From assembly GCA_922989275.2 (NCBI GenBank), contig OV277866.1, forward strand, positions 76,048,328 to 76,112,327: a stretch of 64,000 bases of DNA. The letters run 5' to 3'. The translations under genes and the position numbers were made by a program. Shown here piece after piece: positions 3,355-63,393 of this stretch. Numbering within the stretch: position 1 is the stretch's first letter; every line of letters starts with the position of its first letter. Source of the stretch: Gari tellinella. Taxonomy: Eukaryota > Mollusca > Bivalvia > Cardiida > Psammobiidae. A model generated the notes under the pieces. It worked only from the letters and a program-made list of their open reading frames with translations, was not told where the DNA came from and did not search any database.

Positions 3355-3574
3355 GAGGAAAAAAAGTTAACGTTTCCCAATAGATGCGTTTACATTCAAA
3401 CTATTGTTTCTATTGCAAACAATTAGAGTCAGATCAGGCTCCAAACTGTTTGCCGCCCAGCTTAAAAAATGGTCAGATTTGCGACAAGTTGTAGTTTCTA
3501 CGTTTTATTGCAATGTGTTTGCGTTTCGTTTGCTTTGCTTTTAAACGGGAAAGAATAACGTCTTCTCCGCTGTA
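3355..3574 (+). mobile_element. TA-hp1 MITE, degenerate
   Basis: Left end eroded; keeps GTTTGCGTTTCG and TTAAACGGGAAAGAATAACG, and CTTCTCCGCTGTA at the right. The left half of the hairpin is partly lost. Confidence 0.75.
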
Positions 3575-3638
3575 TAGAATAAATCTGAATTCAGCAATCT
3601 GTAAGTAAATCAGCACGGATAGGATCTACATATTGACA

Positions 3639-3867
3639 GTTGAGAATACCATATTCTTTCCCAATAAACACGTTTACGCTAACACATGATTGCCATTGCA
3701 AACAATGCGGAGCCTTATCAGACGCCGAGTAACTCGGCATAATATTTGGCTCCTACGATTGGCCACTTTGAAAAATGATCAGTATAAAAATGTTTTTTCT
3801 ACGTTTTATTGTGATGCGTTTGCGTTTCGTTTCCGTTTAGACGGGAAAAAGTAACGTCTTCTTTACT
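3639..3867 (+). mobile_element. TA-hp1 MITE, degenerate
   Basis: GAGAATACCATATTCTTTCC at left, AACGTCTTCTTTACTG at right; hairpin core ACGCCGAGTAACTCGGC remains. Confidence 0.75.
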
Positions 3868-3879
3868 GAATCTGAATAG

Positions 3880-4060
3880 TTACAATGAATAACTTAGCCC
3901 CTTCACTGACGTGACGCCATCCATTTAGGACAACTGTTGTCTGCCTGCTTTTCTCAAATTTGAAATTTAGGTATTTTGACCGAAGAAAAAGTGAAATGTG
4001 TGTCAAACCGTTTGGATCCTGATCAAACTCCGTGTATCCATTTGTTCATAACCATTGCAC
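3880..4060. mobile_element. TTAA-hp1 element relic
   Basis: CCCCTTCACTGACG at left and a decayed class I arm (GTTTGGATCCTGATCAAACTCC) without its partner. Truncated before the SINE. Confidence 0.5.
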
Positions 4061-4227
4061 TCGACGTAAGTGACAAGTAGACGTTGCAGACATTTAACAT
4101 GTTGAGTCACTATCATTGGGCTATTAAAAGTCTGCTTGTACATTGTACCAAACCGTGAGGCCTAGAGCTTTGATATTTGATGTGTAGGATTAAGTAGCAG
4201 CCCTCTACCAAAGTTGTTATAATGATT

Positions 4228-4690
4228 CAGGGGCCTCCGTGGCCTAGTGGTATAGTCACTGTGACTTACATCACTAAGCTCCTCACCGCTGTGAGTTCGA
4301 ATTCGGATTTTTCATGTGGGGAAGCCTTCCAGCTGGCTTGCGGAGGGTCGGTGGTTCTACCCAGTTGCCGATTTGTGTCTGAAACATTGCATTGCACCAG
4401 AGGCTTCTGGGGCCCGTTTCATAAAACTTCGTACGACAAAAACGATCGTAAGTCTAAACTTTAAAATTAATTTAATTTCTGATTTCTCCATCTAATCCAG
4501 TCTTGTGACATCCTTTTGTCACAAGACAGGATTAGATGGAGAAATAAATAATAATTGAGACTTTTATAATCTGACTTACGACAACTTTTGTCGTACGAAG
4601 TTATGAAACGGGCCCCTGAGGTCTTCCTCCATCTGTAATTAGCTGGACGTCGCGATATGACTTAAAGTCTGTTAAAAGTTACGTAAAATC
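4228..4690 (+). mobile_element. tRNA-derived SINE interrupted by a MITE
   Basis: A-box-like TGGCCTAGTGG (about 4241) and B-box-like GAGTTCGAATTC spaced as in tRNA genes, followed by a body ('gaagccttccagctggcttgc') and, after the inserted element, 'aggtcttcctccatctg'. The head-plus-body layout is that of mollusc tRNA SINEs. Confidence 0.8.
4410..4615. mobile_element. PIF/Harbinger-like foldback MITE inside the SINE
   Basis: Ends GGGCCCGTTTCATAA... and its inverse, flanked by CTG on both sides (4407-4409, 4616-4618), fitting a 3 bp target duplication. The interior is also palindromic (stem CTCCATCTAATCC / GGATTAGATGGAG), so most of the 206 bp can fold on itself. Confidence 0.82.
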
Positions 4691-4888
4691 ATATCAAATC
4701 AAATTTGAATGATGCAACTTGGGCCATGTGTACTGTGTCAGACATGTATTTCCAGTCGGTTAACCGGCGCCTGGACTAGCTCTGAACTTTCTCTTTGGAT
4801 AGAAAATATTGTATTAGTATAAACGCAGTTATTGGTAAGGAATAACGTCATCTCTGCTGTAGCTTACGAGGGGATATTCCATTTTCAG

Positions 4889-5117
4889 GTATAATCTTCA
4901 ACGACAACGGCCAATCATTGCGGCACATGCGTCGCTTTACTCTTCAGACTTTAAAGGACTTTGGCGTGGGCGAAACATCGCTTGAGGATAGAGTGGTTAC
5001 AGAAGTAGAAGATCTATCTTTGAGACTCGAACGAGAGACCGGTAAACCTATAGCCATAGGGAAACACCTCGACCACCTGTTGATCAATCTGCTATTTGGC
5101 ATTGTATTTGGAAAGAG
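4889..5117 (+). CDS. P450-A exon 2 (B'-C helix region)
   Basis: Acceptor attttcag, donor gtacag; 229 nt, enters in phase 1 (completing a split Gly) and leaves with a split Arg. Encodes GIIFNDNGQSLRHMRRF and onward to FGIVFGK. Same length and phases as exon 2 of P450-B. The residue where P450s have Trp of WxxxR is Leu. Confidence 0.92.
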
Positions 5118-8100
5118 GTACAGTTACTGCTTTATGTTATTACACAACTAATCGCATAAGCCATGCAATAAAATGTATAAAATGAAGGTTTGAAAAGTAT
5201 TAAAGGATGTATTAAAATCTAGTATGTAAACAGTTTCAGGCCCGGGTAGACGCCAAATTTCTCGACGTCTGATCTGGCCTTAATTGTTTGCAAATGGCAT
5301 GATTCGCAACATTCAAGTATTTTTGGAAAATATCACGTCTTTTAGAATAAATACGCCATGTGTTGAAACTATACAAGCAATTTCTAAAGGCAAACATACA
5401 CGCATGCAATGATACATGTAATAGATTCAAGATTCAAACATTTTATTACGTAACGTAAACATTAACATGTTTCTTGTTACATGATACAATGGATAATATA
5501 TTACATGTAAGAGGTTATTTAACAGTGTTGAGTACAATACTGAATTCTATTGGACGAGTACACAGCAGCCATAATTCATAATGGACGAGTATTTCTCAAA
5601 GTTACATATAAGTTGACGTTTAATATAATAATCAGATTACGCGGCGTCTGATCTGGATTCACGCTGTTTGCAAATGTAAGACAAATCTTATTTTCCCCCC
5701 ATATAACGACTCCCTGCGAGCAATACACACAATATGTGCCTCCCATTGGGTGTCGATGTAGAGAGGGAGAACTGTAGCAGACGCGTGAAATGCCAAGGGA
5801 AGTAACTCTGAACAGAGTGTCGGACGAGTTGTCCAGTCCAATACGAAAATGATATGGATTTTCTGGATCCGAGTCCAATATGAGAAAAATGTGGCCTTCT
5901 GGGATAGCATTTTTACATTCCGGTACAATATATGTTTCTCTTGTACCGTCACGTGGTAGAACGAGGGGCTTTCGATTGGTTTAATCTATGTAGGTGTGAA
6001 ATAAAAGGGTACATGTATATTGGACGACGACCTATGGGCATATTTGTCGGAAACAAAGCATTTGATACAGGTTTAGACTTTGTTACTTTCACGAAACAGT
6101 TGTGTTGGGTTATGCTATGCAATGATTATGCATTATAATAAGCTATGCTACATTTTGTATAAATATAGTGTCATAAATTTTAGGACAAATATAATTATAT
6201 GCAAAGTGTTTGGATATGTTATGAAATCACATCATTTATCTTTTTACCATCTTTCTAATTTTGAACATCTTAAACATCTACATTGAAAGAGAGACACGTT
6301 TGCATGGGCTTATTTGCTTAAGTGGTTACATGTAGTAACCGATGCTTGTAAAGTGACCATGTTGCAAATGTTATTTCGGTCGACATTTGCCTGCCAATGC
6401 AGAATTTGATTGGAGTCCGACAATAAAATAGTTACAGGATTTAATGTATTCTCTCTTCTCGTTTGATTAGATTCGACTTCGATAGCGTAGACAAAATCCA
6501 GAACATTACTAGGAGCAGTCTAGACGGAGGAGGACCGATAAGTCCTGGAAACTTCTTTCCAAGGTTTCTCGTCAAGCTGTTTAACAAACAGGTTCGATAT
6601 TTACAAAGTTGTATTTGACAAATCACAAAATGCATCATAAACAGCTTGTGGTGACAAAGCTGAAGAAATATCACTTTATACACAGTTGAGAATGCGTTAT
6701 TATTTCCCGTTTAAACAAAAGCGAACCGAAATAACTTAAATGCAGAAAAGTTCAGTTTTATAACCCTTATCTTGCTGCAATATAATCTGCATTGAATTTG
6801 TCGTAGGCAAAAGTTGATAACATTTAGATTCATATATTCTTTTTAAGTGAATATACCTAAAGATGAGCGTCAAACAGTTTGGATCTAGATCTGACGCGGC
6901 TTCTGATCTGGATACAAACAGTTTACAAAAATCACTAAAGTCGCGAGGCCAAAGGTTAATACTTTGACTATTCAGTTTATCTGAGTGGCAAACAGTTTAA
7001 CCTGGCGTCTGATCTGGCCCTAACTTATTTGCAATGGAAATAATTGTTTAGTGTAAATGCGTTTATTCGGACAAAAATAACGTTTTTCTAAATAATAAAA
7101 TATTTATAAATAATTCTGACTCATTTAAACAAATAAAAAAGCACACGTAATGCAAATAAATGTTTAAATACTTACGACGACTTTTAAAAGGGATACAGTA
7201 TTTATGCGGCAAAAACTGACCAAGATCAGATGCCGAAGCACCACGCGTCCGATCAGTTTCCCTACTTTTACCATTTACCTAATGTAATCGGCTTTTGTCA
7301 GTGAAGGACTTTTGAATATTTGTCATTCTTGCAGGAAGCCTTACGCAACGCCAATCAGATTGAAGGCTTTCGGCAAATGAGACTGTACACCAATGACGCA
7401 ATAGACGAGCACGAGGCGACATTTGACAACGACAACATCCGGGACTTCATTGACCTATATATCCGCACCGTCAACGAGTCGGACGAAAATGATGAAATCA
7501 AAATAGATCGTAAGATTTTATCTATAAAAGCTTTAATAAGGTTCCTCAGCCGACTTGCCCGATTGTCTACAAAATCACTTGTTTGTTTCGATCTCAGATA
7601 CATGTAGTTGCATTTCGCTGCCATGACATAATCGAGTGTATACAATTTCCGTCTGCTTATTTTCAAATTTAGAGGTTAGATAATTTGATATAAGCATTTT
7701 TAAATTTTGGATGCTGTTCATACGCCTTGTTAAGCTGTGTCTGATCAGGGTCCTTGCTGTTTGTACTAACAAGTGTACTCGGGAAAAGGACGTGAAGGAG
7801 TTTATTTTGTAATTTGATACTAGAAATAATGTACATTTAACCCTTTCACCGCCAGAATCGCCTAAAGTCGAATTTTCAAACAATTTTGATCCTGATCAGA
7901 CGCCGCGTGAAGCGGCGTCTGATCAGGATCAAAACTGTTTGACACCCGTTTCGATATTTTTTATGTCATACTCTCTGAATTCTAACTTTGAAATTATATT
8001 GCAGACAATAATATTGAAGCAGACGACACAATTACGGTGTAAAACACTCAAACATAATTTGGCGGTGAAAAGGTTAATGGGTTTGACATGTCCAATGGGC

Positions 8101-11100
8101 TACTCGTAAACTCACGCCAGTAGTATAATTGACTGAAAACTCAATGTGTGACTTACACAGTCTAAGTTATTTGCTACATGGATTATTGCAGGCAAAGATT
8201 TGTTTCGTGTAATTACGGACTTATTTTTGGCTGGATGGAAAAGCCCAGCAGAAAGTCTACAATGGGTGTTTTTGTATATGAGCCAGTACCCGGAAGTCCA
8301 GAAAAGATGCCAGAAAGAAATAGCTGAGGTAATATTTAAATTATGCACCATTTCGACACCATAGGCACTATCAGCAAACGTTACGTACAGGTTCTAATAT
8401 TTGGTATCCGACACGGTGTCAGAGCGTTTAGCATTCGTAAAGATATTTCTACACTTAATTTGCCTTTAATATACACCGTGGCCGAGGCGTTTGTTTTTAA
8501 ACAAACGCGTTAATATTAAAATTAGCCTTGATATTGCAAACAGTTTGAAGTCAGCTAGACGCCGAGTAACCCCGGGTATTACTGTGCTGATCATTTGTCT
8601 ACTCTGATAACACTTTTCATATGTCAAAGCTTGCCACAAACGGAGTAAAAGAGTTTAACGAAACAGAAACAAATGCCTATACATGTAGAAATACTGTACA
8701 TTTGCAAAATTACAGATTTATGAAAGCAAAATACAGTTTTTTTCTTTTATACGAGGACAATTGTGGTTGCTTTAGAACAGATACCCTTACTGTACACGAA
8801 GCCATCGAAAACAATTGTTGTTGAGACTTGATCTTATTTTACTTATTTTGTATGCGGTAATTAGCCTCGTTAGGCAGAAAGCACAGACTGACCATTGAAG
8901 GATGCTTACCGGTATTGTACACTTACAGAGTACATAGCTTGCCTAGATTAGCAAAATACTCTAACAATGTACTCGCGTTAGTTCGAATACACCCTTATTT
9001 CAAAGTTCAAACGTGATATGGCCAATATTTAATTTTGAAATACGGATATATTCGACATAAGCGAGATAGAATTATCGAAAATCAACGTTGGAAATAGTAG
9101 TAAGATCGATTTAATCGATTTCGAAGCATCGAGTTTGGTCTGTATTTATGGGAATGCGTTGATGTACAGCTGAATAGACGTTATTCTTTCATAATACATG
9201 TAACACGTTTATGCTCAAACTTTAACCCCATATGCAAACAGTTTGGAACCAGATCAGACATCGAGTAACCCAGCATCTGACCAGGCTCTTAGCTGTTCGC
9301 TACTCAGATTCAAATATATAGAATTGTCAAAACTGTGTCATCTTTTATATTTTAATGCAATTCATTTGCGTTTTGTTTACGTTTAAATGGGATAGAATAA
9401 CGTCTTCGTCACTGTAGACACAGTGGAGAAAATGTTATTCTAAAATGTTATTCTTTCCCGTTTAAACGCAAACGAAACGCAAACGCATCGCAATAAAACG
9501 TAGAAAAAGATGACTTTTCGACAATTCTGACTATTTATTTTAATCTGAGTGGCAAACAGTTTGGAGCTTGATCAGATGCCGGGATACCCGGCGTCTGATC
9601 TGGCTCCAAACTGTTTGCAGTGGAAATTATAGTTTTAGCGTAAACGCGTTTATTGGGAAAGTATAACGTTTTCTCCATTGTACTGGGTTGTTTGCTCCAG
9701 GTTGTCGGTGATCGAATAGTCAGTTATTCGGACAGAAAGAAGCTCGTCTATGTAGAAGCAACACTGCTGGAAATACAGAGGCTCTCTGCTGTGTGTAAGT
9801 TTGTATTTGATAAGGATGTATGTCTGCCATGTGCCTGGTATCAATTTACGTGTACTTTGGACGTTTTCCTAGCCTTTTCAAGGGCTACCATAAGTTGACA
9901 TAAAAGATCCTAAGCATTAACCACTTCACTGACTAACCCCGAGGACTATACTTATTTGCAAACAGTTTGGCCCCGATGACAATAGTAATTTGCAAACAGT
10001 TTGGCCCCGAGGACAATAGTATTTTGCAAACAGTTTGGATCCCGATAAGAAGGCTGCGCTACGCGCCGTCTGATTAGGACCCAAACTGTTTTTCGCTCAT
10101 TTGAATATATTTGTCCAAATACCTAAATTTGAACTTGATGAAAAAACAGGCGATTCTTTTTTTACAATTGATGACCTAATGGCAATGAATTAGTTAAATG
10201 TTACGTGCAATATCTTTGTTTCAGTGCCTATAGCTATTCCACACTGCACTTCGAAGTCCACGCGTTTGTACGGCTACAGCATTCCTAAAGGCGCCATCGT
10301 TGTTCCCAGTCTCTACTCAGTGTGCTACGATCCTAAACTATGGGATAACCCAGAGGAGTTTAGGCCTGAGCGTTTTATCAACGAGTCGGGCAACCTAATA
10401 AGCCATGACACGCTGCACACGTTTTCAGCAGGTACTTTGTTGAAAACTCAAGATGATGTTTATTCATGTTTAACCCGAACTTGTCTGAAAAGATCACCAC
10501 CGTTTATTTACATTTGCCCTGCAACGTCTTTACTTAACCGTATTAACAATATGGATTTAGATGTTCCATAAACCTTCAAATCGAAACTGTCTCCAGCCAG
10601 TTAGAGCATTTCCAAACACGCTAAAGAAGGCGGGGAGATACCGACCGAATTGGATTAACTCATGAAGCCTTAGTGACGCATATATGCGTCCTTTACCAAA
10701 TATGTACCTGTGAAGAGTACACTTGTCCTATGCAAACAGTGAAGTCCCTGATTAGAGGACTCCTGCAGGCGCCCTCTGATCAGGGACTTCGCTGTTTGTT
10801 ATTTTGCAATTTATTACAAAACAACCCTACAAAGGCTCAAATGAACTAGCCTTGCAAACTGGAATTGTCCATTGGAAGTTTCAGGGGATAATGAGTTAAG
10901 ATCTATTTTGAGAATTTCCACTGGAATCAATACAAGTTATGTGTGTAAACATTTACTAATTAAACGACGTCTAATTATGCCATACATTATTGGATTTTTA
11001 ACTTATGTATCAATTCTCAATGTACGCATGATAACGCTCTGTAGCACTTTCTCTGCGAATGTAAGATTCCATTCGTCCCCGATAGAATGGCGAGTTTAAA

Positions 11101-15785: not shown

Positions 15786-15789
15786 TTTA

Positions 15790-18376: not shown

Positions 18377-18573
18377 GCAATACAATGCACTGAGGCAAAC
18401 GGTATTTCGGAATAGTTTGCTTTAGTGTGAAATTAGAATTGTTTGGAAGATCTGATCGGATTTACAAAATGATTTCACTGGACCTATTTGTTTCAGAACA
18501 AACATCTTTATTAAGAGTATAGCCGGTGCACCTAATGTGTAATACATGTAACATCTTCCCTATTCCAATGATA

Positions 18574-18819
18574 CAGTGGAGAATATGTTATTCTTTCCCA
18601 ATAAACGCGTTTACGCTAAGACTATAATGTCCATTGCAAACAGTTTGGAGCCAGATCAGACGCCGGGTAACCCGGCGTCTGATCAGGCTCCAAACTGTTT
18701 GCCACCAAGATAAACATGAATTATCAGAATTGTCCAAAAGTTGTTCTTTTCTACGTTTTAGCGCTTTGCGTTTGCGTACGTTTGCGTTTAAACGGGAAAG
18801 AATAACAGATTCTCCACTG
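18574..18819 (+). mobile_element. TA-hp1 MITE, full copy (246 bp)
   Basis: CAGTGGAGAATATGTTATTC to AACAGATTCTCCACTG, TA on both sides. Hairpin arms of 33 bp: CAAACAGTTTGGAGCCAGAT... and inverse, apex CGGGTAACCCG. Right half carries GCGTTTGCGTACGTTTGCG. Confidence 0.95.
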
Positions 18820-19319
18820 TAATAAATCGAGTCTAGACTATAATCTGCAAGCATTTGTAGTACAGTAGAACCCCTCTATCACGACTACTTAACAGAGGAG
18901 TATTTAATTGCATGAAAGACAAGCGACAGCCTAACGTTATGTATAGATACATAGAGAAAGTGTAGATAGAAACAATAGGGATAGTTTACTGTATCTTCAT
19001 AAAGATACAGTGGAGATGAAGTGAATGTGTTCCAGTTTAAACATAAAACGGAGCAAAATATTTTTATTTTCAAGCTTTCTATAGATATACTGATTAAGTT
19101 CGAGTTTTGGCGTCTGCTGGCGACTATGCTAAACCACATGAGACTTCTATGTGCAATAGAGAATATGACATTGCTATTATTTCCAAAAAAAAAGCTCGTT
19201 CATTCTAATTCTAATTTTCTAGTGCTTGCAGCCTGATCAGACACGACGTCTAAGCAGTTCCAAACACTTTGCACATCATATTAAAAAAGATTTGTCAACA
19301 AGTCAAATTTAGATAATTA

Positions 19320-20619: not shown

Positions 20620-20664
20620 CTGAATGTCAAATAGTTTGAGACATAATAGTAGGCGGCGATCTTA

Positions 20665-20911: not shown

Positions 20912-20991
20912 TATCAGTGCCTGAAACGTGTTCAGTTACCACTGTTTGCTGTTAAGGTTAGCAATATGTGTCCCGTGTGCAGCGTGCAAAG

Positions 20992-51900: not shown

Positions 51901-54900
51901 CCATTAGGATGTTTGGCAAACGCTTGTTCAGCAGTGGCTTAACCTAATGTTTGATACAATTTCTTGTTATTTCATTCATGAATCAAATTTAATGTAATAG
52001 ATGATGATCCCAGGAAACCTCAAAGCATAGTTCATTACAGTGATACAAAAATCTGTTTTAAACCATTGACCCAAACGAACCGTGGTTACACCTGTAACTG
52101 CGTCTAGGACACTATCATGCAGCTCATCAGACATATGATGAGGGGATGCAGACATAGTTATGAGAACGTACTCAAGACATGGTGTTAAGCAATTGATATT
52201 CAAAACTCTTATATCTTTACCACTTGAAGTTATGTTTGTGTTACTTTCATTACATAAGTTTACCATACTGAGGTTTAGAACATATATTTGACATACCACT
52301 GTCACAGTGTCAGCGTCATTAAGAAAGGCCCAGACATCTGCGAAGCCCGAATTGCATAACAAATCTCTTACTTTGCCAGACCAATCAATAATAACCATTC
52401 ATTTCTGTCTCAATTTCTCTTCTCTGACTGTCACTAATGTATTTAAGAATGCAGTTATCATATTTAATCGTATAAAACTTTAATCAGAATTGTATTATTC
52501 TGACATGTCTTCAAACATATAATGGAAAACGACCTAACTCAGCATATAATGGCATCCAAGCTTGGTCAACTAATGTATTTAAAGACATTTCCTGACCTAC
52601 TTTTGGTGATAATCCCACGGAGGCAGGCACTTTCCTAGCAATACTCATGATTTGTATGCATACATAACTGTATTACTGTGAGTCATTGAGGCGTTTCGTG
52701 TGAGGCCGGACTGCTAAATTTGAAAGTTTGGTTAGTAAAACCCATTGGAAAACCATTCAGTGTGAGTATGCCAGGGCTTCTCCAGACACCTTGAGGTTGA
52801 TGAAATTGATTGTGCACACTTTACTCCTGCTTTACAATTTTACAGTTACTTGCACGCCTATCGAGAACAATTGGGTTAGGGGGTGGTTTCATCAAAGGAC
52901 TAAGGAAAAGTCTTTAACTTCGCTACAAAAATGTACATACAATTCAAACATGATGCAATAGAACATCAGATAAGAAGTCCTATATAGTTGAGTGGGTAAA
53001 GGCAGTGGTACAAGTTACGTGTAAGCATATATCTTGTATTGGGTTTTATTTATCTTGTTCGCACTGGTTCGATCCCGATCGAACTCGTTACTTAATTCTT
53101 TCAAATGTTTTCCCTGAACTACTATTTACTCGTGTATGTAGGTATATGCCATCCATTTACAATAGAAAATTGTGTACGCCAAGTTTGGTGTTCAGTTTCT
53201 TTAAAAGCGGTTTAGCAAGTGAATACATTTTACAATGTACCTCTAGGAGGTTGAGAGGTTTCATAACCAAATAGACGGATTCAGGCAAATGAGGAAATAC
53301 GTCCTCGAGCAAATAGACGAACATGAAGCAACATTCGACAGGGACAACATCCGGGACTTCGTTGACTTATACTTGCGCACTGTACAAGACTCAGATGATG
53401 CAGAAACCAGAAGGCTTGATAGTAAGGACACAATTGCACCTATAGTTTAAACTACAGTGGAGAAGAGTTATTCTTTCCCAATAAACGCGTATACGCTTAA
53501 ACTATTGTTTCAACTGAAAACCGTCAGTGTGGAGCCAGATTAGACACCGGTACCCGGCGTCTGATCAGGCTCCAAACTTATTGACATTCAGAACAGAATA
53601 AATAGCCAGAGTTGTCATAAAGTTGTTGTTTTCTCGTTTTATTGCAAATTCGTTTTGTTTGCGCTAAACTGGAAAGAATAACGTCGTCTTCACTGTACCT
53701 TCCTACAAGTACAGTGGAGAAAACGTTATTCGTTCCCGTTTAAACGAAACGAAACGCAAACGCAAAACACTAAAACGTAGAAAAATGCAACTTTTGGACA
53801 ATTGTGATAATTCATGTTTATCTTGCTGGCAACCAGTTTGGAGCCTGATCAGACGCCGGGTTACCCGGCGTCTGATCAGGCTCTCTACTGTTTGCACTGG
53901 AAATAATAGTTTTAGCGTAAAAGCGTTTATTGGGAAAGAATAGCGTTTTCTCCACTGTACCTACATGTACATAATATTATCTATTTGGTTATCTGCCTGT
54001 CTGTCTGTCCATTGGCCTGTCTCTCTGCCTGTATGACTGTACATGTATGTATGCATTTCTTTTTTTATTGTAGTATGCATTTCCTTCCTAGTCGTCTGTT
54101 TGCCGGTTTACCTGTCTGACGAACGGACTGAGATTTGTTAAAGTTAGATTTACTTTCCCGCTGGTTTTAACCACTGAACTTTGTATTCTGTTTTATGAGA
54201 GTTTGCTGCTAAAACAGATGTTTCGTGTAAGAAAACTCTGCATATTTATTACCATCCTTTACAGTAAACAGTTGCTTATGACAGATTGATAGTTTTTGTC
54301 TATTGCATTGGTTGTTATGATAGTACTTTATTTTATTCAACCAGCTACTCTATATTTACTCCTTGTTTCAGCCTCGAATGTATTCATCTACCGACATAAG
54401 AAAACTGTTCCTCTTTAAACAGTCATGAATATGTACATGTACCATAATTTCCCTTTGATTTTATTTTAAATCCTAGAAGATGGTATATATAGCGTAAAGC
54501 AGGTTGACATTAAAGGAAAACTTACGGAGGCGCATTCCGCTTTGCATTCATCTGCTTTAAGTTATTACTTGTCTTCAGAATTGGAAACATACATGCTATG
54601 TAGTTAAGGCTTTTTACCATGAGTAATTGTCCCATACTTAAGATGCCGTCCAATTTGTTTTCCGTGTATTCTATACCTACACACAGTATCTGAGTGACAC
54701 GTATTTTGATAACTGACCAGGGGCCATTTTAGTAGGGTCTGATATGGATCCAAACTATTTGCTGAAATCTTCAAGACACGTCTACAGTTTTAAAGCTGAG
54801 AATTTGGTTTTAACCCATTACCCCAAACCATGTTTTAGTTATGAGGACAGGATGTCCACTTATACAGGGTGAAAGTAAATCAGTAAAAGCTTTCAGGCTT

Positions 54901-57900: not shown

Positions 57901-60900
57901 AATCAGTATTATTAACCGGTGGCACCGTAGGGTATGTTACACATTTTATTATCCTCTGTACATGTATCTTAAAACGCCATTGTTTTTGCAGAGCAGGATA
58001 TGTTCCGAGTAACCATAGACCTGTTTCTAGCGGGCACGGAAACAACTTCCAGTGCACTTGACTGGGCCTTCCTCTATATGATACAGTATCCGGATATACA
58101 GAAGACATGTTACAACGAAATATCACATGTAAGTTAGGTTTATGCGGGCTTAACCTCACTGTAGATATCGTTGATTACGTTTGCAAACAGTGAAGACCCC
58201 CATCAGCAGGCTCCTTCAGAAGTCCTCTGATCTAGGCTAAACTATTGGTGTCTGTTGCCATTCAAACAGCAGCAAAAGGAGACTAGTTAGATTGTCTATG
58301 CTATAATAATCCAAAATAATTATAAATACCGATCATGTAGGTGATAGATATAAAGAGTTTCCATCATCAATGGTCAATCATAATACTGTATCGTCAGCGC
58401 ATTGGAAATGTAGAAAATGATAATTTGTTAAACATGTTAACGATTTAATATACACATTGATTTAAGCCCATTCAGACGCCGAGTGACTCAACGTCTGAAT
58501 TTGCCCAAACATGTCTGCCAATAAAAATATTAATTCAAGACAAATTCTTGTTTTTGTGTGTTTGTTTTTAAATAATAACGTTTGTTTCGCCTGTATATTT
58601 ATCCCGAGCCAGGTGTGCGGACATAAAGCCATTCAGTATTCAGACAGGAGCCAGCTCGTCTACATTGAATCCACATTATTGGAAGTTCTACGACATGCAA
58701 CAGTTCGTGAGTACTTGCTCAACTTTTCTACTACCTAAATATAGACCAGAATTTGGAAACGACAAACAGGAGCGGCCTAATTCAAAAGACTCTGTCAAAT
58801 ATCGGGGGATTACAGCAGGGAAGTCGTTATTATTTTTCTTAATAAACTCGTTCAACCAGTTACAGTGGATACGACGTTGTTCTTTCCTGTTTAAACGCAA
58901 ACGTAAAAAATATGAAAATGATAACTTTTTTACATCTCTATATTTGTTTTAATCTGTGTGGTAAACATTTTGGAGTCTGATCAGACGCCGGGTTACCCGA
59001 CATAAGATCTGGCTCCAACCTGTTTGCAATGGAAATAAAAGTTATATCGTACACGCGTTTTTTTTAAAAGAAAACGTTTTCTCCACTGTATTTACATTTC
59101 AAAAGATTGGAGTCTGGTCAATCGCCAGATAACGGAATAAATTAAGCGTCTAAAGTGCCAAGAAATTGCAATTTTTCATATTTCTTTTTTACATTTCTGG
59201 ATTCCGTTTGCGTTTACATGTAGTTTCGTTAAAATGTTACATGTTATATTTACATTACTTCAGAACGCCAACTTAATGCACACCGACTCTTTGTAGAGAA
59301 TGACTACATTATACATTTCAAATGCTCATAGACAAAACAAGAACATTGTAACCTATGGTTTTTGTTTACCATTGTACTAAGATATGTTAGAACAACCTAT
59401 GCAAATATTTTCATAGCGATCCTACGGAGATTTCGTTTGAGCGCGTATGTCCTTGAATACGCATTCTGCTTTACCATTAACCTGTTGTAAATGACCATAT
59501 GTCTCGATTACTAGAAACATGGTCTTTGGTAATGGATTAAACTAAAACTATTATGTTTCCCAATGTCATTAATACAGAGTGATATACATGCAGACCCATT
59601 ACCAACGACTGTGTTTCAGCTAGTCGACGTATTATGACATATTTTCAATGCGAGCATGAAACTTGTTAAATCATTCTCATATCAAAACGCTCTTTTAAAG
59701 AAATATGGATATATTCATTCAGAAATATATATTTTAGAAGTTTCTAGGTCTGTTTCCAAGATTATATATAACATCCATCACCCAACACGAGCACGCTAAA
59801 CTATGAATGTTGTGTTACCTTGGGATCAGACTTATAAGCTACGGTAGTTAGCAAATAATACGTGTATGAACTCCATACTCAAAATCGATTTGTGTGCGAT
59901 TAAACTATGGATCGTTTCTATCGTTTTAGTACCCCTAAATGTCATCCACTCTACGACTAGGGCTGTCACTTTCAAGGGATATGACATATCAAAGAATACC
60001 CTAATATTGCCCACAATGTATTCAGTAATGTACGATACTAAGTACTGGACAGACCCGCACATTTTCCGACCAGAGAGGTTCATTAACAACACGGGGAAAC
60101 TAATCAAACATGACGCAATGATTCCATTCTCTGCAGGTAAGTGAGTGTGTCATTATTCGAAGAGGTACTGCTCTCCCTAATAGCAGATAAACGCGCAACG
60201 CGGAAAAGTCTGATGTTACGTGTATTACATTTGGGATCAGATATGTTACCATTCATTAAGCATCCGTACATCTTTAATGATTGCGTTCATTATAGTACAT
60301 AGGCACAGTTTATTCGTATTTTAAACATTAAGTTACCCGTTACATATTCAATCATTTATCAACAGGTCTAATCAAAGCACGTGGCATGCAAATGTATAAT
60401 AATGAGATCAATATGTATGCTTAGTCCAATTCTCCCATTGCGACGCATATACATTGTATATGCGTCCTTTATAATTTTGTATGGTGAAAATTACTATTGT
60501 CTTATGCAATCAGTGCAGACTCCGATCGGAATACTCCTTACAGGTGTACTCCGATCAGTGCTGGACTTTTTGACAGTTTGATATACGCTTTTAAAAATCA
60601 ACCCTTGTTAATAACCATTTCAATCTGGGTGAATCAGTTAACCATATTATCGAAAGTACCAACATTTCTTGAATGAAATATGAGGGAAAGTATAAGGAGA
60701 GTTAACACTAGAGAGATCCGTACTTTATAATATAACCTGTAAGTGTTAGTATTTATATTCATTATTGCGGGCTTTTAAGAACAAAATAATATATTATATT
60801 GTCAATAAGATATCATTGCGCCTAGAATTTGCAAAACTTATAAATCTACATAAGTTAATAAGCGCTATATACAGTGGAATATCTGTTATTCTTTCCCTAT

Positions 60901-61668
60901 AAACGCGTTTACGCTAAAACTATTTTTTGCAGTGCAAACAGTTTGGAGCCAGATCAGACGCCGGGTAACCCGGCGTCTGATCAGGCTCCAAACTGTTTGC
61001 CACCAAGATAAACAGGAAATATCAGAATTGTCCAAAAGTTGTTCTTTTCTACGTGTTAGTGCTTTGCGTTTGCGTACGTTTGCGTTTAAACGGGAAAGAA
61101 TAACAGATTCTCCACTGTATCTCTACACACCATATTATGTGACGACTCATCACAGTCGGCTCGGGGAAGAACCTTGCAATGACAAGGACATTTCAGTGCA
61201 GTTTCCCCTTATAGTGGAGAAGACGTTATTTTCCCAATACACGCGTTAACACGAAAATCATTATGTTTGCTGCAAATATTTTAACTAGATCAGATAAACC
61301 GACATCTTATCAGGCTAAAATAATGTTCGCCAATCGGATAAAAATAGATCATCAAATATTTTCAGAAAATTGTCATTTACTACATTTTACTATTTTTCGA
61401 TATGCGTTTCGATTCATAACGAGACATATTAAAGTCTTCTCCGCTGCTGTTCGTTACAATTTTGCAATGTTTATATGTTTAAGGTCCTCGAATATGCCTA
61501 GGTGAGTCGCTGGCAAGAGTGCAGTTATTCCTGGTTTTTGCCAACCTGCTCCAGAAGTTTGAATTTCTACAAGAAGACCCGGCTGTGAAGCACACTTTTG
61601 AGTCCATCCCTGAAAGGTTCACCAATTCTCCTACACCCTACAATCTACGAGTATACAGACGAATATGA
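39589..61668 (+). CDS. P450-B: complete CYP2-clan cytochrome P450, 8 exons, 500 aa
   Basis: Exons 39589-39937, 40648-40876, 44147-44273, 53247-53421, 57992-58128, 58613-58706, 59930-60136, 61484-61668 join to 1503 nt (500 residues plus TGA); every intron is GT-AG. Seen: N-terminal hydrophobic anchor (residues 2-20), basic stop RRPR, hinge PPGP (27-30), WRSMR (127-131), I-helix AGTETT (307-312) with Glu310-Thr311, EVLR (363-366), PERF (418-421), haem loop FSAGPRICLG with Cys444. Length is normal for the family. Predicted endoplasmic-reticulum monooxygenase; substrate unknown. Start at 39589 is preferred over an in-frame ATG at 39517 because the anchor follows directly. Nearest vertebrate relatives would be CYP2 members such as CYP2U or CYP2J, but I cannot assign a subfamily. 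Intron 3 (9 kb) is almost wholly repeats. Confidence 0.96.
40540..40632. mobile_element. TA-type MITE right end next to P450-B exon 2
   Basis: TTTGAAATACGGGTATTTTC and GAGATATCGAAGTTCGACTG then TA; related to the 23.75 kb element. Ends 15 bp before the exon. Confidence 0.6.
40648..40876 (+). CDS. P450-B exon 2 (C-helix)
   Basis: Acceptor tattttcag, donor gttggt; 229 nt. Encodes GILFNDYCHSWRSMRKF with the conserved Trp and Arg, ending FGLVFGK plus split Arg. The end of a TA-type element relic lies at 40632, 15 bp before the exon. Confidence 0.95.
40909..41090 (+). mobile_element. TA-hp1 MITE, truncated
   Basis: CAGTGAAGAAGACGTTATTA, hairpin collapsed to GGAGCCTGATCAGTCTCCG, then TCAGATTAACATGACTGTTT and TTATGCGTTTGCGTTTCGG. 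Confidence 0.75.
41105..41287 (+). mobile_element. TA-hp1 MITE, right part
   Basis: CAAACAGTTTGGAGAGGCCA with a decayed partner arm, then TTTAAGCGGAGAAAAATAAC and GTCTTCTACACTC. Confidence 0.7.
41565..41760 (+). mobile_element. TA-hp1 MITE, truncated
   Basis: CAGTGAAAAAAAAGTTATTC; hairpin CAGACGCCGAGAAACTCAGC; no right end. Confidence 0.65.
42155..42475 (+). mobile_element. TTAA-hp1 relic
   Basis: TTAAGCCTTTACATGCTAG at left and TATGGCTGTGAAAGGGTAAA at right; hairpin reduced to GTTGATCCTGGTCAGACCTG. Confidence 0.5.
42820..43062 (+). mobile_element. TA-hp1 MITE, full copy
   Basis: CAGTGGAGAACACGTTATTC to AACGTTTTCTCCACTG. Here both arms read GCCAGATC / GATCTGGC, so the usual family mismatch is paired. 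Confidence 0.92.
43634..43884 (+). mobile_element. TTAA-hp2 element (class II hairpin)
   Basis: TTAACCCTTTACCCCATAGC to GGGAAAGGGTTAA; hairpin apex GTGCCTTAAGGCAC; flanked inside by GAAGACAGGTGGCC. Confidence 0.93.
44147..44273 (+). CDS. P450-B exon 3
   Basis: Acceptor cttcttttag, donor gtatgt; 127 nt. Completes Arg, then YEYGDPQFESVSQMTKL and ends KLINRE on a codon boundary. Confidence 0.93.
44610..44720 (+). mobile_element. TA-hp1 left fragment
   Basis: AGTGGCAAATACGTTATTTC, CTGAAACTATTATTTCTATG, first arm only. Confidence 0.6.
44755..45925 (+). repeat. Bivalve tandem-repeat element, ~125 bp units
   Basis: About seven units with GGTCAAGTTTGAATGTGGGT, AACTAGGTCACTAGGTCAAA and CCTTGTTAACACTCTAGAGG. 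Left lead-in CGTCCGTCTGTCCGTCG; right end GAGGTGAGCGATTTAGGGCC then GTGGCCCTTGTT. This layout is widespread in bivalve genomes (known to me as a class, not checked). Interrupted by an AAAGAC-end element at 45575-45840. Confidence 0.9.
45575..45840. mobile_element. AAAGAC-end MITE, copy 2, nested in the tandem repeat
   Basis: TGCCAGACAATTTCCTTGC at left (eroded), AGACTGAGGAAAAGTATTT at right; body AAGCGTCTAATGTGAGACCC matches copies 1 and 3. Confidence 0.7.
45940..46120 (+). mobile_element. TTAA-hp1 relic
   Basis: ACCCATTCACTGCAATGACG; hairpin CTCGGATCCAGATCACACGC and GTGTCTGATTTGGATCC; right part lost in a T run. Confidence 0.6.
46675..47987. mobile_element. hAT-like non-autonomous element, 8 bp target duplication
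   Basis: Left CACAGGTTTTCGGCGCGTAA and right-end inverse CATAGGCATTCGGCCCGTTG agree, continuing through GCTATGACAC in both (24 of 30 positions). CTCTGATC stands at 46667-46674 and again at 47988-47995. Subterminal C-run (46704-46718) and G-run face each other. No transposase seen; contains another MITE at 47240. Confidence 0.9.
47240..47473. mobile_element. MITE with ATTGGTCGTATTCGAATCA ends
   Basis: Perfect 19 bp inverted ends bound 234 bp; lies inside the hAT-like element. Interior has TTGTCAAC / GTTGACAA inversions. Confidence 0.85.
48395..48618. mobile_element. Inverted-end element (GAATATAACCTACATTT)
   Basis: GAATATAACCTACATTT and its inverse AAATGTAGGTTATATTC bound 224 bp; inside, CCAATCAAA is also inverted as TGGGCCAATCA-like sequence. 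Confidence 0.8.
48620..48729. repeat. Foldback with CGCTCGTTACG loop
   Basis: TAGTTAGAACATATTAAGTG ... TTAAGAAGGGGC, then a loop with CTCGCTAACGCTCGTTACG, then GCCCCTTCTTAA ... CACTTAATATGTTCTAACT. Confidence 0.85.
48823..49072 (+). mobile_element. TA-hp1 MITE
   Basis: CAGTGGATACACTTTGTAAA at left (small insertion), AACGTTTTATCCACTG at right; right arm lacks 6 bp at the apex. Confidence 0.9.
49073..49306 (-). mobile_element. TA-hp1 MITE, inverted, abutting the previous copy
   Basis: TAACGTTATTCTGTGATCCC at left (tip lost), GAAAAACATCTGCTCCACAG at right; decayed hairpin GAGCCTGATCAGACGCAGGG. Confidence 0.8.
49307..50690. other. P450-B intron 3, mixed repeat debris
   Basis: A tandem pair of TATGAGAGAAA...GATGCTTTTAATCTATTTGT (49406-49480), a TTAA-hp4-like arm near 49515-49560, a class II relic at 49755-49835, and a reversed AAAGAC-family-like segment near 50150-50300 (GGGCCTCACATGAGACACC). 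Confidence 0.5.
50690..51185 (-). pseudogene. LINE (non-LTR) ORF2 C-terminal fragment
   Basis: Minus strand: LKSRLKDIYITNWHTSVNSS, ELQINFQRSSYLGVLEKDKY, then the zinc-knuckle-like NERICPVCVLNDIEYVYHF and LIYPRYENLRKHY (51185 to 50787). A frameshift follows and TSMKALLTKLAIYCIKTFKL ends at TAG near 50700. This CxxC...H...C tail is typical of mollusc non-LTR elements of the jockey/CR1 side; no reverse-transcriptase core is left. Confidence 0.75.
52280..52398 (-). pseudogene. Possible upstream piece of the same LINE type
   Basis: IDWSGKVRDLLCNSGFADVW resembles the segment that normally precedes the LKSRLKD region in these LINEs. The frame stays open to 51976, but the rest matches nothing I recognise. 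Confidence 0.35.
52581..52915. mobile_element. AAAGAC-end MITE, copy 3
   Basis: AAAGACATTTCCTGACCTAC to GGACTAAGGAAAAGTCTTT; body GAGGCGTTTCGTGTGAGGCC and CCTATCGAGAACAATTGGG. Confidence 0.85.
53247..53421 (+). CDS. P450-B exon 4
   Basis: Acceptor acctctag, donor gtaagg; 175 nt. Encodes NQIDGFRQMRKYVLEQIDEH and DRDNIRDFVDLYLRTV. A TA-hp1 element begins at 53455, 33 bp after the donor. Confidence 0.95.
53455..53695 (+). mobile_element. TA-hp1 MITE 33 bp after the exon 4 donor of P450-B
   Basis: CAGTGGAGAAGAGTTATTCT to ACGTCGTCTTCACTG; hairpin apex shortened (CACCGGTACCCGGC). Confidence 0.9.
53712..53957 (-). mobile_element. TA-hp1 MITE, full copy, facing the previous one
   Basis: CAGTGGAGAAAACGTTATTC with TTTAAACGAAACGAAACGC; right GCGTTTTCTCCACTG, TA flanks; hairpin GGAGCCTGATCAGACGCC with its partner. 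Confidence 0.94.
53958..55395. other. P450-B intron 4, repeat debris
   Basis: Class II relics at 54495-54600 (GTAAAGCAGGTTGACATTAA) and 54810-54960, a class I arm at 54735-54760, and ATGAACGAATGAATGGTGTT with CCCATCGACACAAGAAGGTC (54990-55050), a phrase common in mollusc repeats. No exon seen. Confidence 0.5.
55395..55830 (-). pseudogene. LINE fragment: end of RNase H and C-terminal tail
   Basis: Minus strand: CKSALALTESDMNLPYSDFK, FILGKWQESRNEESHNKAYA and IKTVLVEC, then (frame broken near 55585) LRIGHSYMTHSY, REVQPEYLFCFEPYTNQHIL and IDCADLN. The order (RNase H end, tether, RxGHxxxTH, CxxC-H-C) is that of jockey-type LINEs. Several stops. Confidence 0.75.
56030..56560 (-). pseudogene. LINE 3' end: last codons, UTR and tail
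   Basis: Minus strand: LECDYFEQDRQQHMYDIGVR to NLWSKFIDI (56555-56316), then an AT-rich UTR and tail GGAGGAAATAAAGATATATA near 56070-56035. A class II-like hairpin arm (GATTAAAGCAGCAAACTC) sits in the UTR at 56222. Confidence 0.55.
56570..56690 (+). mobile_element. Class I hairpin relic
   Basis: GGTTGGGATCTAGATTATAC, apex GCCGCGTAACCCGG, and GGATCCACACGGTTTGTCAT. Confidence 0.6.
56691..57991. other. P450-B intron 4, last part
   Basis: AT-rich, no element borders or exon recognised; a GACGT-rich patch lies at 56985-57180. Confidence 0.5.
57992..58128 (+). CDS. P450-B exon 5 (I-helix)
   Basis: Acceptor tttttgcag, donor gtaagt; 137 nt. Encodes QDMFRVTIDLFLAGTETTSS, the canonical oxygen-activation motif, then LYMIQYPDIQKTC. 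Confidence 0.96.
58165..58260 (+). mobile_element. TTAA-hp4 relic
   Basis: GCAAACAGTGAAGACCCCCA, CAGGCTCCTTCAGAAGTCCT: one arm and a degraded apex. Confidence 0.5.
58613..58706 (+). CDS. P450-B exon 6 (ExxR)
   Basis: Acceptor gagccag, donor gtgagt; 94 nt. Encodes IQYSDRSQLVYIESTLLEVL and R366; the ExxR pair is intact. Confidence 0.94.
58863..59088 (-). mobile_element. TA-hp1 MITE
   Basis: CAGTGGATACGACGTTGTTC to AAACGTTTTCTCCACTG, TA flanks; hairpin right arm decayed (CCCGACATAAGATCTGG). Confidence 0.88.
59089..59929. other. P450-B intron 6, right part
   Basis: Contains a TA-hp1-like tail at 59095-59240 and a class II relic at 59460-59510 (GCATTCTGCTTTACCATTAA); no exon seen. Confidence 0.5.
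59930..60136 (+). CDS. P450-B exon 7 (PERF region)
   Basis: Acceptor tcgttttag, donor gtaagt; 207 nt. Encodes LPLNVIHSTTRAVTFKGYDI and HIFRPERFINNTG, ending at the split Gly of FSAG. Confidence 0.95.
60430..60642 (+). mobile_element. TTAA-hp4 element, diverged
   Basis: GCGACGCATATACATTGTAT, TCTTATGCAATCAGTGCAGA, hairpin GATCGGAATACTCC with GTGTACTCCGATC, right end GGGTGAATCAGTTAA. Confidence 0.75.
60872..61117 (+). mobile_element. TA-hp1 MITE, full copy (246 bp)
   Basis: CAGTGGAATATCTGTTATTC to CAGATTCTCCACTG, TA flanks, intact 33 bp arms. Confidence 0.95.
61214..61447 (+). mobile_element. TA-hp1 MITE, old copy before P450-B exon 8
   Basis: TAGTGGAGAAGACGTTATTT at left, AAAGTCTTCTCCGCTG at right; the hairpin is eroded (CTAGATCAGATAAACCGACA). 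Ends about 36 bp before the last exon. Confidence 0.75.
61484..61668 (+). CDS. P450-B exon 8 (haem cysteine, stop)
   Basis: Acceptor tgtttaag, 185 nt to TGA. Encodes GPRICLGESLARVQLFLVF and ends YNLRVYRRI. A TTAA-hp2 element starts 63 bp after the stop and carries an AATAAA (about 61934) that could serve as the polyadenylation signal. Confidence 0.95.
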
Positions 61669-61730: not shown

Positions 61731-61981
61731 TTAACCCTTTCCCACATAGCATATCTCTAGTATTAAATATAGGTGTCCACTTAAAGCAGGTTGAAAGTAA
61801 AGCAGAATGCGCTTTAAGCGCATTCTGCTTTACTTTCAGCCTGCTTTAAGCTATCATCTGCTAGAATATAGAAAATATTTTGTATTATACATATTTATGA
61901 ATGTGTAAATCGGAACTATTTTCTTCAGGGCAAGAATAAACTGAATGCGCTAAAAGGCGCTTATATGGGGGAAAGGATTAA
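61731..61981 (+). mobile_element. TTAA-hp2 element in the 3' flank of P450-B
   Basis: TTAACCCTTTCCCACATAGC to GGGGGAAAGGATTAA. Class II hairpin, apex GCGCTTTAAGCGC. Contains AATAAA near 61934. Confidence 0.93.
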
Positions 61982-62013
61982 TGGTGATAAACAAATCAGA
62001 TCGTTAACGAATT

Positions 62014-62371
62014 GCTGTATTACAATCTACAACGACATCCAATGGGAGACAAAGATAGAGTTTTTTGTTCGGAGGGAATCGTTTTAGGGAGGGAAATTGG
62101 CTAACATTTGCAAACAGCTTAAATCCAGATCATATGCCGCATTACGCGGCGTCTGATCTGGATTCAAGCTTTTTGTCACTCGTCATAATGTTGTTTTCTG
62201 TTCAAATGTCCAATATGTGACATTCGAGAAAAACAACAGACGACAATTTTAAGCAGACGATATTGCAGCCGACAAAAGCTTGGACATAATAGTATTGTTT
62301 TGGAATAACCACAATGGTCGTTGTAAAGAAGGAATCGTTGTTCGGAGGACCGTTGAAGGGAGAGAGTACTG
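62014..62371. mobile_element. TA-hp2 MITE, inverted relative to 21654
   Basis: CTGTATTACAATCTACAACG at left, GGGAGAGAGTACTG at right; hairpin CAAACAGCTTAAATCCAGAT, apex GCATTACGC. Confidence 0.8.
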
Positions 62372-62467
62372 TCACAGTATAAAAGTTAAATCACTGTGTA
62401 CCTTATGACTAGACGTTTAACGAAGCCAATTTGTGTCAATGACTTTCAATACGGGGTGCATGTATAA

Positions 62468-62621
62468 TGTTAAATGACGCGTAACGCGGAGTCTGATAAG
62501 GATCCAAACTGTTTAACACTTATCATCAATATTTCCTAGGTCAAAATACCTTATATTTAACTTTGAAATATGGCGTGAAAGGGTAAATAGCTTGCGATTA
62601 ATTTGGCACCGAAAGGGTTAA
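62468..62621 (+). mobile_element. TTAA-hp1, right half
   Basis: Starts at the apex (GACGCGTAACGCGGAGTCTG), ends TTGGCACCGAAAGGGTTAA; left arm lost. Confidence 0.7.
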
Positions 62622-62675
62622 ACAGAAAGAAATATTGCCTACCACACAGCATTACCAGTGCATTAAAAATGGTTG

Positions 62676-62889
62676 TTAACCCTTAGCCCGCCAAATAAAT
62701 TGTCGTCTGCTATATTTCTCGTCTGCTTCAAGTTTCAAAGTGCTTCAAAGTTGCTCAAAATTGCTGAAAATGTTGTCCGAGTGTCAAACAGCTTGGATCC
62801 GGATGAGACGCCGAGTTACTCGGCGTCTCATCCGGATCCAAGCTGTTTGCATATGGAGCTATGGTCGTGAGTGGCAGGCTAAGGATTAA
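62676..62889 (-). mobile_element. TTAA-hp3 element (214 bp)
   Basis: TTAACCCTTAGCCCGCCAAA to GTGGCAGGCTAAGGATTAA; inverted copy of the 33257 element with the same TCCGGATGAGACGCC stem. Confidence 0.92.
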
Positions 62890-63164
62890 TGATACTAGGT
62901 GTCTAGCATGTAACCCCTTGGCTGCCTTACCCCTAGGGCAATACTTGTTTGCACGAAACTTGATTCAAATACAACGCAATAAATTGTGAATAAAATAACT
63001 CTCATGAAATTGAAATTGATCTTTTTAAATCTGAGTGGCAACCAGCTTGACACCGATAAAATATGAAACTTTTTACTCTGATTTCTGATTTGGCTCCAGA
63101 CTTTTTGCAATGTATATCAGCTCTTGAACTGAAATGCACACTTCAAAATAAAACCTGAGTTTGA

Positions 63165-63393
63165 CAGTGGAGACTTCGTTATTATTTGCCGTTACAACGC
63201 ATTGCAATACGTAAACGCATTGCAATACAAAGTAGGAATGGACACATTTCCGAAACCTCTGAATGCTCATCTGAGTGATAAACAGTTTGTGATGGATTAC
63301 CCGGCGTCTGATCAGGCTCCAAACTTTGTGAGATGGAAATGAGAATTTTAACTTAAACGCATTTATTTGGAAAGAATAACATCTTCTCCGATG
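63165..63393 (-). mobile_element. TA-hp1 MITE, left hairpin arm mostly lost
   Basis: CAGTGGAGACTTCGTTATTA to CATCTTCTCCGATG; AACAGTTTGTGATGGATTAC joins CCGGCGTCTGATCAGGCTCC. Confidence 0.8.

What the first reader, a model, noticed from the sequence alone, without database searches (positions are those of the whole stretch)
3355..63393. One hairpin design (class I) sits in the middle of at least six element families with unrelated ends and two target types
Seen: stems beginning CAAACAG and ending CTGTTTG, mostly with TGATCAGA-like inner sequence, are central in TA-hp1 (CAGTGGAGAA ends), TA-hp2 (CTCTCTACAAC ends), TTAA-hp1 (CCCTTTCACYGCC), TTAA-hp3 (CCCTTAGCC), TTAA-hp4 (CTCAT ends) and TTAA-hp5 (CCCATTTATACC). 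Stems are 28-33 bp, stay nearly perfect while the rest of each element diverges, and differ in register between families (GGAGCC, GGATCC, GAATCC, GAAGTCCC). Known: TA targets are typical of Tc1/mariner and TTAA of piggyBac, two unrelated transposases. Inference: the hairpin behaves as a cassette exchanged between families, or is selected for a common function (small-RNA precursor, replication or cruciform element, host-factor binding). I know of no named system that does this.
Basis: partly seen in the sequence, partly recalled or inferred. Interest (0 to 1): 0.9.

Follow-up and report, generated by a model that had tools for sequence, protein, structure and literature searches.

The report
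Shared hairpin core across transposon families
A 64-kb stretch of what looks like an animal genome holds dozens of tiny mobile DNA elements whose ends differ but whose centres carry closely similar hairpins, a core that was likely inherited and refitted with new ends over time and that would be kept because it helps the elements multiply.

Summary
A hairpin model finds 59 copies at 15 bits or more (best score in ten shuffles 6.4 bits). Similar 67-base stem-loops lie inside TTAA-ended and TA-ended miniature elements.

The stronger claim, that only the hairpin is shared, fails. A one-sided flank goes with it. In one TA-hp2 copy nearly the whole long half of a TTAA element, out to the place of its old end, lies inside TA-type ends. 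So a core was inherited and its ends were replaced.

The hairpin is still special. Identity between families is 77% in the hairpin, 54% in the tail, 50% in the short flank; random DNA gives 48.5%. Paired changes exceed shuffles on three of five measures clearly. Within one family, copies show no pair repair, so constraint would act on propagating copies.

New here: a second, unrelated hairpin sits in both TTAA elements (3) and a TA element (1), the 4 of 8 examined copies with clear ends.

Precedents exist: coral CMITEs, MER6, palindrome-centred MITE-like repeats in a clam. New variant of a known kind. Function is inferred; genome-wide tests could not be run.

The parts
18572..18821 (+). TA-hp1 element, TA target, CAGTGGAGAA ends, hairpin at 18636-18702
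20663..20913 (+). TA-hp1 element, hairpin 20727-20793
22344..22593 (+). TA-hp1 element, hairpin 22408-22474
25610..25859 (-). TA-hp1 element, perfect 26-base end match, hairpin 25729-25795
26577..26826 (+). TA-hp1 element, hairpin 26641-26707
34233..34482 (+). TA-hp1 element, hairpin 34297-34363
53710..53959 (-). TA-hp1 element, hairpin 53829-53895
60870..61119 (+). TA-hp1 element, hairpin 60934-61000
42950..42989 (+). Example of the one-sided tail (begins CACTCAGATT) that follows the hairpin 42883-42949 in a TA-hp1 copy
7837..8077 (+). TTAA-hp1 element, CCCTTTCACCGCCA ends, hairpin 7876-7942
   Evidence: p about 0.01
33257..33468 (+). TTAA-hp3 element, CCCTTAGCC ends, hairpin 33294-33360
   Evidence: p about 0.01
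62676..62889 (-). TTAA-hp3 element, reverse orientation, hairpin 62784-62850
   Evidence: p about 0.03
21652..22002 (-). TA-hp2 element, ends with CCTCTCTACAAC (end match marginal); holds hairpin 21838-21904 plus a TTAA-type long half that ends near 21736
25264..25492 (-). TTAA-hp5 element, CCCATTT ends, hairpin 25386-25452; orientation inferred from side lengths
   Evidence: p about 0.05
10655..10899 (+). TTAA-hp4 element, CTCAT ends (weak), hairpin 10732-10799
19474..19726 (+). TTAA-hp2 element with class II hairpin (19523-19593)
43634..43884 (+). TTAA-hp2 element with class II hairpin (43684-43753)
61731..61981 (+). TTAA-hp2 element with class II hairpin (61780-61850)
21331..21539 (+). TA-ended element (CAGTAGAACCTC ends) carrying a class II hairpin (21388-21483)

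Best explanation
These are miniature DNA transposons built on a shared core, a 67-base hairpin plus a one-sided flank, which likely began in TTAA-ended elements and was likely refitted with new ends, including TA-type ends, while the hairpin would be kept because it helps the element multiply. Shown: the hairpin sits in TTAA- and TA-ended elements; several families also share flank sequence on one side of it; in one TA-hp2 copy the TTAA-type long half, out to the place of its old terminus, lies inside TA-type ends; the hairpin is far better conserved between families than its flanks and shows paired changes; TA-hp1 copies decay one arm at a time after insertion. Inferred: (1) TA families arose when a TTAA element sat inside, or was flanked by, TA-type ends and the composite was then mobilised by a mariner-like transposase; (2) since resident copies are not repaired, the hairpin is kept by selection on copies that transpose; (3) it acts as DNA, as a cruciform or as a dimeric-protein site that brings the ends together or aids gap repair. 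Step 3 is the least certain.
For: Hairpins in both target types. Both TA-hp2 tails match the TTAA-tail model at 12.0 and 10.7 bits, 0 of 2600 shuffles; with a longer model the 21838 copy matches positions 16-111, including the region of the CAGTGAAAGGGTAA terminus (19.0 bits), and the 62110 copy positions 15-97 (16.4 bits). TTAA-hp3 tail matches the same model at 9.0 bits. TA-hp1 tail, first 8 bases: p 0.0004 for the old consensus, 0.013 for the young one. TTAA-hp4 short side against TTAA-hp1-like short side: 14 of 2000. Inter-family identity: hairpin 76.9%, tail 54.1%, short 50.0%, random 48.5% (58 pairs among 13 chosen copies). Covariation on 20 copies: 34 cells changed on both sides against 17.0 in shuffles, cells paired 80.6% against 76.7%, score 0.197 against 0.135, each 0 of 500; score at most 0.074 when slid. 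Post-insertion decay in 22 TA-hp1 copies: 85 one-sided changes, 7 two-sided, 2 of them complementary. Class II hairpin repeats the pattern: 50.3 bits in the TA element, arm match 0 of 2000 shuffles, no match to class I. Internal sequences affect MITE mobility: mPing (PMC9921582, passages).
Against: No transposition, protein binding or cruciform was measured. TA-hp1 shares only about 8-14 bases of tail; over 60 bases it is not significant (459 of 2000), and the TTAA-tail model gave no hit on 23 of 24 TA-hp1 long halves. TTAA-hp5 against the TTAA hub is not significant (241 of 2000), and hp4 and hp5 flanks fail the anchored test (p 0.33-0.88). Two of five covariation measures are only suggestive: pairs with a change on both sides 13 against 9.6 (32 of 500), further pair types 39 against 34.2 (23 of 500). 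Nesting is shown for TA-hp2 only; by eye TA-hp1 keeps no TTAA-end remnant. Copies were found by searching for the hairpin, so families that lost it are invisible. Arms are not significantly more conserved than TIRs within TA-hp1 (p 0.17). The class II case rests on one TA copy.
Confidence: 0.5

Rival explanations
1. Palindrome reset at family birth: when a new family forms, repair synthesis snaps back and copies one arm onto the other, so each family starts with a perfect hairpin without any selection for it.
For: Young copies are near perfect while old copies decay independently; paired differences lie between families; the class II TA copy has arms 48 nt long against 33-35 nt in the three TTAA copies.
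Against: The TA-hp1 consensus keeps one unpaired position, which a fresh copy would not. Hairpin sequence is held at 77% between families, which reset alone does not explain.
Confidence: 0.2
2. Cassette exchange: hairpins move between resident families by gene conversion or recombination at the palindrome.
For: Hairpin identity is as high between families as within them (76.9% and 76.6%), while flanks are more family-specific.
Against: Flank sequence goes with the hairpin on one side in several families; paired family-specific differences persist rather than being homogenised.
Confidence: 0.15
3. Plain common descent of MITEs; the hairpin looks conserved because it was the search key and because decayed hairpins were missed.
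For: All class I copies were found by the hairpin; chain-like flank sharing across families; arm decay close to TIR decay.
Against: Within copies already chosen, flanks fall to near-random identity between families while the hairpin does not; the covariation score far exceeds the slid controls, although a structure taken from these sequences is favoured in that control.
Confidence: 0.12
4. RNA or host function: transcripts of the hairpin feed small-RNA pathways or act as host regulatory sites.
For: Stable stems of about 26-34 bp; rice MITEs yield many small RNAs (stated in a PMC4732748 passage).
Against: Resident TA-hp1 copies show no pair maintenance; 17 of 85 one-sided changes leave a G-U pair, with no baseline computed. 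No Rfam family reaches its gathering score in the window. No RNA data were available.
Confidence: 0.06

Closest known systems
CMITE elements of Acropora corals (PMC2872659; outline, first quarter of the text, and sections on families, CMITE-IN and discussion seen)
   Same: Several TTAA MITE families with different ends share an internal region that is better conserved between families than the ends; family VI left end CCCTTTCACTGCCA differs by one base from the TTAA-hp1 end here; CMITE-IN is a new element made by insertion. The authors call the origin of the core a mystery and suggest a role in transposition.
   Different: CMITEs are about 100 bp and all TTAA; their 60-base core has no long stem and does not match this core. 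Here the core holds a 67-base hairpin and also sits in TA-ended elements.
MITE-like repeats of the clam Lucina pectinata hemoglobin genes (PMC4732748; passages and the comparative results section seen)
   Same: A 210-bp repeat with 30-bp terminal repeats and a 77-bp central segment 96% self-complementary; a second repeat with a 68-bp self-complementary segment shares a stretch with it; similar fragments are reported in other molluscs.
   Different: No target duplication was found there, and in the parts seen the repeats were not compared across transposon types. The sequences are in a figure not held, so homology is untested.
MER6, a mariner MITE carrying a V-SINE core (PMC6887750; passages seen)
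   Same: A conserved core from one kind of mobile element is carried inside TA-type ends of another by nested insertion, then amplified.
   Different: The core came from a SINE; the word hairpin does not occur in the main text.
Tc1/mariner and piggyBac non-autonomous elements
   Same: TA or TTAA target sites, with CAGT or CCC ends as recalled for these superfamilies.
   Different: No transposase domain was found in the 8 ORFs scanned; assignment rests on ends and target sites only.

Membership tests
MITE (miniature inverted-repeat transposable element) | Short element with matching terminal inverted repeats at a fixed target site | tested here: met
   209-253 bp with matching ends at TA or TTAA for TA-hp1, TTAA-hp1 (one copy), TTAA-hp3, TTAA-hp2 and the 21331 element (one copy); marginal for TA-hp2, hp4 and hp5
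CMITE | TTAA target and CC[C/T]T ends | tested here: inconclusive
   TTAA with CCCTT or CCCAT ends in TTAA-hp1, hp2, hp3 and hp5; not met by hp4 (CTCAT) or by the TA families
CMITE | The CMITE 60-base internal consensus | tested here: not met
   Best window match 7.5 bits, E 0.51; of 18 tail tests the best was 15 of 500 shuffles
CMITE | Internal region better conserved between families than the ends | tested here: met
   Hairpin 77% between families against 50-54% for flanks; ends differ by family
Lucina pectinata palindromic MITE-like repeat | Central, nearly self-complementary segment of about 70-80 bp with terminal inverted repeats of about 30 bp | tested here: met
   Similar architecture, not identical: 67-base hairpin, 26-base end match in TA-hp1
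Lucina pectinata palindromic MITE-like repeat | Sequence identity of the repeat | not testable with these tools
   Its sequence is in a figure and in records not held
Tc1/mariner superfamily (TA families) | TA target site and a matching autonomous transposase | tested here: inconclusive
   TA sites and CAGT ends seen; no transposase in the 8 ORFs scanned
piggyBac superfamily (TTAA families) | TTAA target site and a matching autonomous transposase | tested here: inconclusive
   TTAA sites and CCCTTT-like ends seen; no transposase in the 8 ORFs scanned. Kolobok also uses TTAA (recalled)

The most novel reading that the evidence does not exclude
Central palindromes are portable amplification modules: at least two unrelated hairpins have each been taken up by elements of two different transposase systems, because a DNA hairpin at the middle of a miniature element raises its success whichever transposase moves it.
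Probability: 0.25. Interest if true: 0.85.

Novelty: new variant of a known kind. Interest (0 to 1): 0.6.

Why it matters
Why some MITEs reach very high copy numbers is, as I understand the field, still open, and most work looks at the ends. A centre that outlives its ends, in two target-site types and with two unrelated hairpin sequences, points to a cis-acting feature of the interior that can be tested directly. It also warns that families filed by their ends may be one lineage. The CMITE authors left the origin of such a core open; a palindrome with paired changes gives a concrete hypothesis.

Tried and rejected
Hairpin in viral contigs: three pattern scans gave 0, 0 and 2 stretches; the two were not examined. 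Prokaryote genomes: 20 stretches with the core palindrome, judged chance palindromes from the record titles and not read. Phage records: no match to one 67-base query. Rfam: none at gathering score. Protein search with an ORF that runs through a hairpin: no homologue. Literature searches for the peptide words read from the left arm (ANSLDPDQTPR frame) found 0 papers, for DNA words of the hairpin 0 and 10 whose listed titles are unrelated; that this peptide is common in predicted proteins of marine invertebrates is recalled, not tested. Further literature searches.

Rejected: ongoing palindrome correction of resident TA-hp1 copies (7 double changes, 2 complementary, among 660 scored pairs; hand arithmetic with one uniform rate expects about 4 double changes, more when copies differ in age, a third of them complementary). 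Rejected: homology of the core with CMITE.

Results against a shared flank: hub against TA-hp1 over 60 bases 459 of 2000, hub against hp5 241, TTAA-hp3 against TA-hp1 142; short sides of the hub against TTAA-hp3 2000, TA-hp1 289, TA-hp2 374, hp5 2000, and TTAA-hp3 against hp4 71 (all of 2000). In one search, 23 of 24 TA-hp1 long halves gave no hit; one of 20 TA-hp1 short halves scored 3.5 bits (6 of 2600 shuffles). In one search the random-window nulls evidently held real family members (null maxima up to 84), so one search was run with shuffles. One TA-hp1 half copy (36665) was left out of the 22-copy alignment of 23 matches. By hand count 17 of the 59 hairpin copies were not assigned to a family. 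Of the class II copies, 8 were examined for ends; 12605, 54489, 49752 and 59446 showed none that I trust; weaker places at 46513, 54852 and 56220 were not tested for ends.
Full report
WHAT IS THERE. The request to search the window's own genome was sent 13 times and never answered, so all statistics are from this window.

The hairpin is real and abundant. CAAACAG occurs 84 times against 12.5 expected. A model from six copies finds 59 places at 15 bits or more; ten shuffled windows gave at best 6.4 bits. Of 37 strong palindromes, 25 are this class by hand count; ten shuffled windows held 0 or 1. As single DNA strands six class I copies fold at -26 to -40 kcal/mol, with 0 of 200 shuffles as good.

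THE ELEMENTS. TA-hp1 has 23 matches above 110 bits, a 250-base consensus, and matching CAGTGGAGAA-type ends at TA in nine copies. TTAA-hp1 (7837-8077) and TTAA-hp3 (33257-33468 and 62676-62889) have 14-base end matches at TTAA. Ends of TA-hp2, hp4 and hp5 are weaker by the same test. I read copies with the longer side to the right. In that orientation the hairpin is followed, in TA-hp1, TA-hp2, TTAA-hp3 and the TTAA-hp1-like group, by a tail that begins CACTC or a near variant; hp4 and hp5 lack this start.

THE CORE IS BIGGER THAN THE HAIRPIN. A profile of 12 TTAA-type tails hits both TA-hp2 tails (12.0 and 10.7 bits; 0 of 2600 shuffled sequences reach this), while 23 of 24 TA-hp1 long halves gave no hit and the other one -0.7 bits. 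With a longer profile of 10 tails (the 'hub') the match runs over 86 bases in the 21838 copy and 80 in the 62110 copy; in the former it takes in CATCAGTGTAAGCATAAAA, opposite the hub's GGCAGTGAAAGGGTAAAA, the region of the old TTAA end, and TA-type end sequence lies outside it. This is the evidence for a TTAA element housed inside TA ends. For TA-hp1, an anchored test of the first 8 bases gives p 0.0004 (old consensus) and 0.013 (young consensus); over 60 bases it is not significant (459 of 2000). Against the hub tail, TTAA-hp3 reaches 26 of 2000, hp4 41, TA-hp2 5 and hp5 241; hp4 against hp5 gives 6; the hp4 short side against the hub short side gives 14; the other short-side tests do not reach 5% except TTAA-hp3 against hp4 (71); eleven side-swapped controls were all non-significant. 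These values are not corrected for the 13 tests. The picture is a chain of related cores with different ends, firm for TA-hp2, moderate for TTAA-hp3 and hp4, thin for TA-hp1 and hp5.

THE HAIRPIN IS THE CONSERVED PART. Among 13 chosen copies of four groups, between-group identity is 76.9% for the hairpin, 54.1% for 60 bases of tail, 50.0% for the short side, and 48.5% for random pairs of 60-mers. In an alignment of 20 copies, 34 cells are changed on both sides against 17.0 in shuffles, 80.6% of cells are paired against 76.7%, and the covariation score is 0.197 against 0.135, each with 0 of 500 shuffles as high; 13 of 32 pairs have such a change against 9.6 (32 of 500) and further pair types number 39 against 34.2 (23 of 500). 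The score falls to 0.074 or less when partners are slid. Hairpin hp4 was not in that alignment.

RESIDENT COPIES ARE NOT MAINTAINED. In 22 TA-hp1 copies, 660 scored stem pairs hold 85 one-sided changes and 7 two-sided ones, of which 2 are complementary. In 14 old copies the arms diverge 97 of 849 against 260 of 1620 in flanks (p 0.0017) and 97 of 704 in TIRs (p 0.17); in 7 young copies 4 of 448 against 28 of 889 (p 0.012). So neither host selection on each copy nor a repair process at the palindrome is visible in this family. Paired changes would have arisen in lineages that went on transposing.

A SECOND HAIRPIN DOES THE SAME. A hairpin of different sequence (no match to class I) is central in three TTAA elements (19474-19726, 43634-43884, 61731-61981) and in one TA-ended element (21331-21539, 26 of 28 end bases matching). 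The TA copy scores 50.3 bits with the TTAA-derived model and its arm matches with 0 of 2000 shuffles as good. Four further class II copies of the eight examined showed no clear ends. With one TA copy this needs genome-wide confirmation.

HOW IT LIKELY WORKS. Ends change; the core persists. Nested insertion or flanking by new ends would make composites that another transposase can move; MER6 and CMITE-IN are published cases of such nesting (PMC6887750, PMC2872659). Among descendants, those with a good hairpin likely left more copies. Internal sequences are known to raise or lower mobility of MITEs (PMC9921582, passages). Whether the hairpin acts by cruciform, protein binding or gap repair is not shown. 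A selection-free rival, snap-back copying of an arm when a family is founded, fits nearly as well and is the main competitor.

WHAT IS KNOWN. Coral CMITEs share an internal region across TTAA families with different ends (PMC2872659); their core is another sequence without a long stem. A bivalve transposon survey (PMC10294476, passages) says MITEs take a considerable share of bivalve genomes and left them unclassified; the word hairpin does not occur in its main text. My ten literature searches listed no report that I recognised as one hairpin core in both TA and TTAA families; I opened seven papers, and the library holds open-licence papers only.

VERDICT. Observation largely right, independence of families overstated, interpretation half right. 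New variant of a known kind, of real interest because the hairpin's role is testable.

Noticed in passing
28294-29012 and 32075-32614: Two arrays of a 162-base tandem repeat whose consensus units look like reverse complements of each other, about 3 kb apart.
   Followed up: no
30231-30287: A near-perfect palindrome (26 of 28) that looks unrelated to classes I and II, lying between the two 162-base arrays.
   Followed up: no
10194-10571 and 39511-40011: ORF pieces matching profile positions 337-407 and 1-76 of cytochrome P450, as of intron-split genes.
   Followed up: partly
15624-16727: Two adjoining ORFs with a YLDD motif, reminiscent of a reverse transcriptase of Penelope type (recalled); no Pfam match.
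   Followed up: partly
9937-10038: Three tandem copies of a 34-base unit made of the short flank plus the first bases of the hairpin arm.
   Followed up: no
4425-4602: A pair of 86-base inverted arms (76% complementary) with a 6-base gap, a foldback-like element.
   Followed up: no
13735-14736: A 301-base tandem repeat, 3.4 copies.
   Followed up: no
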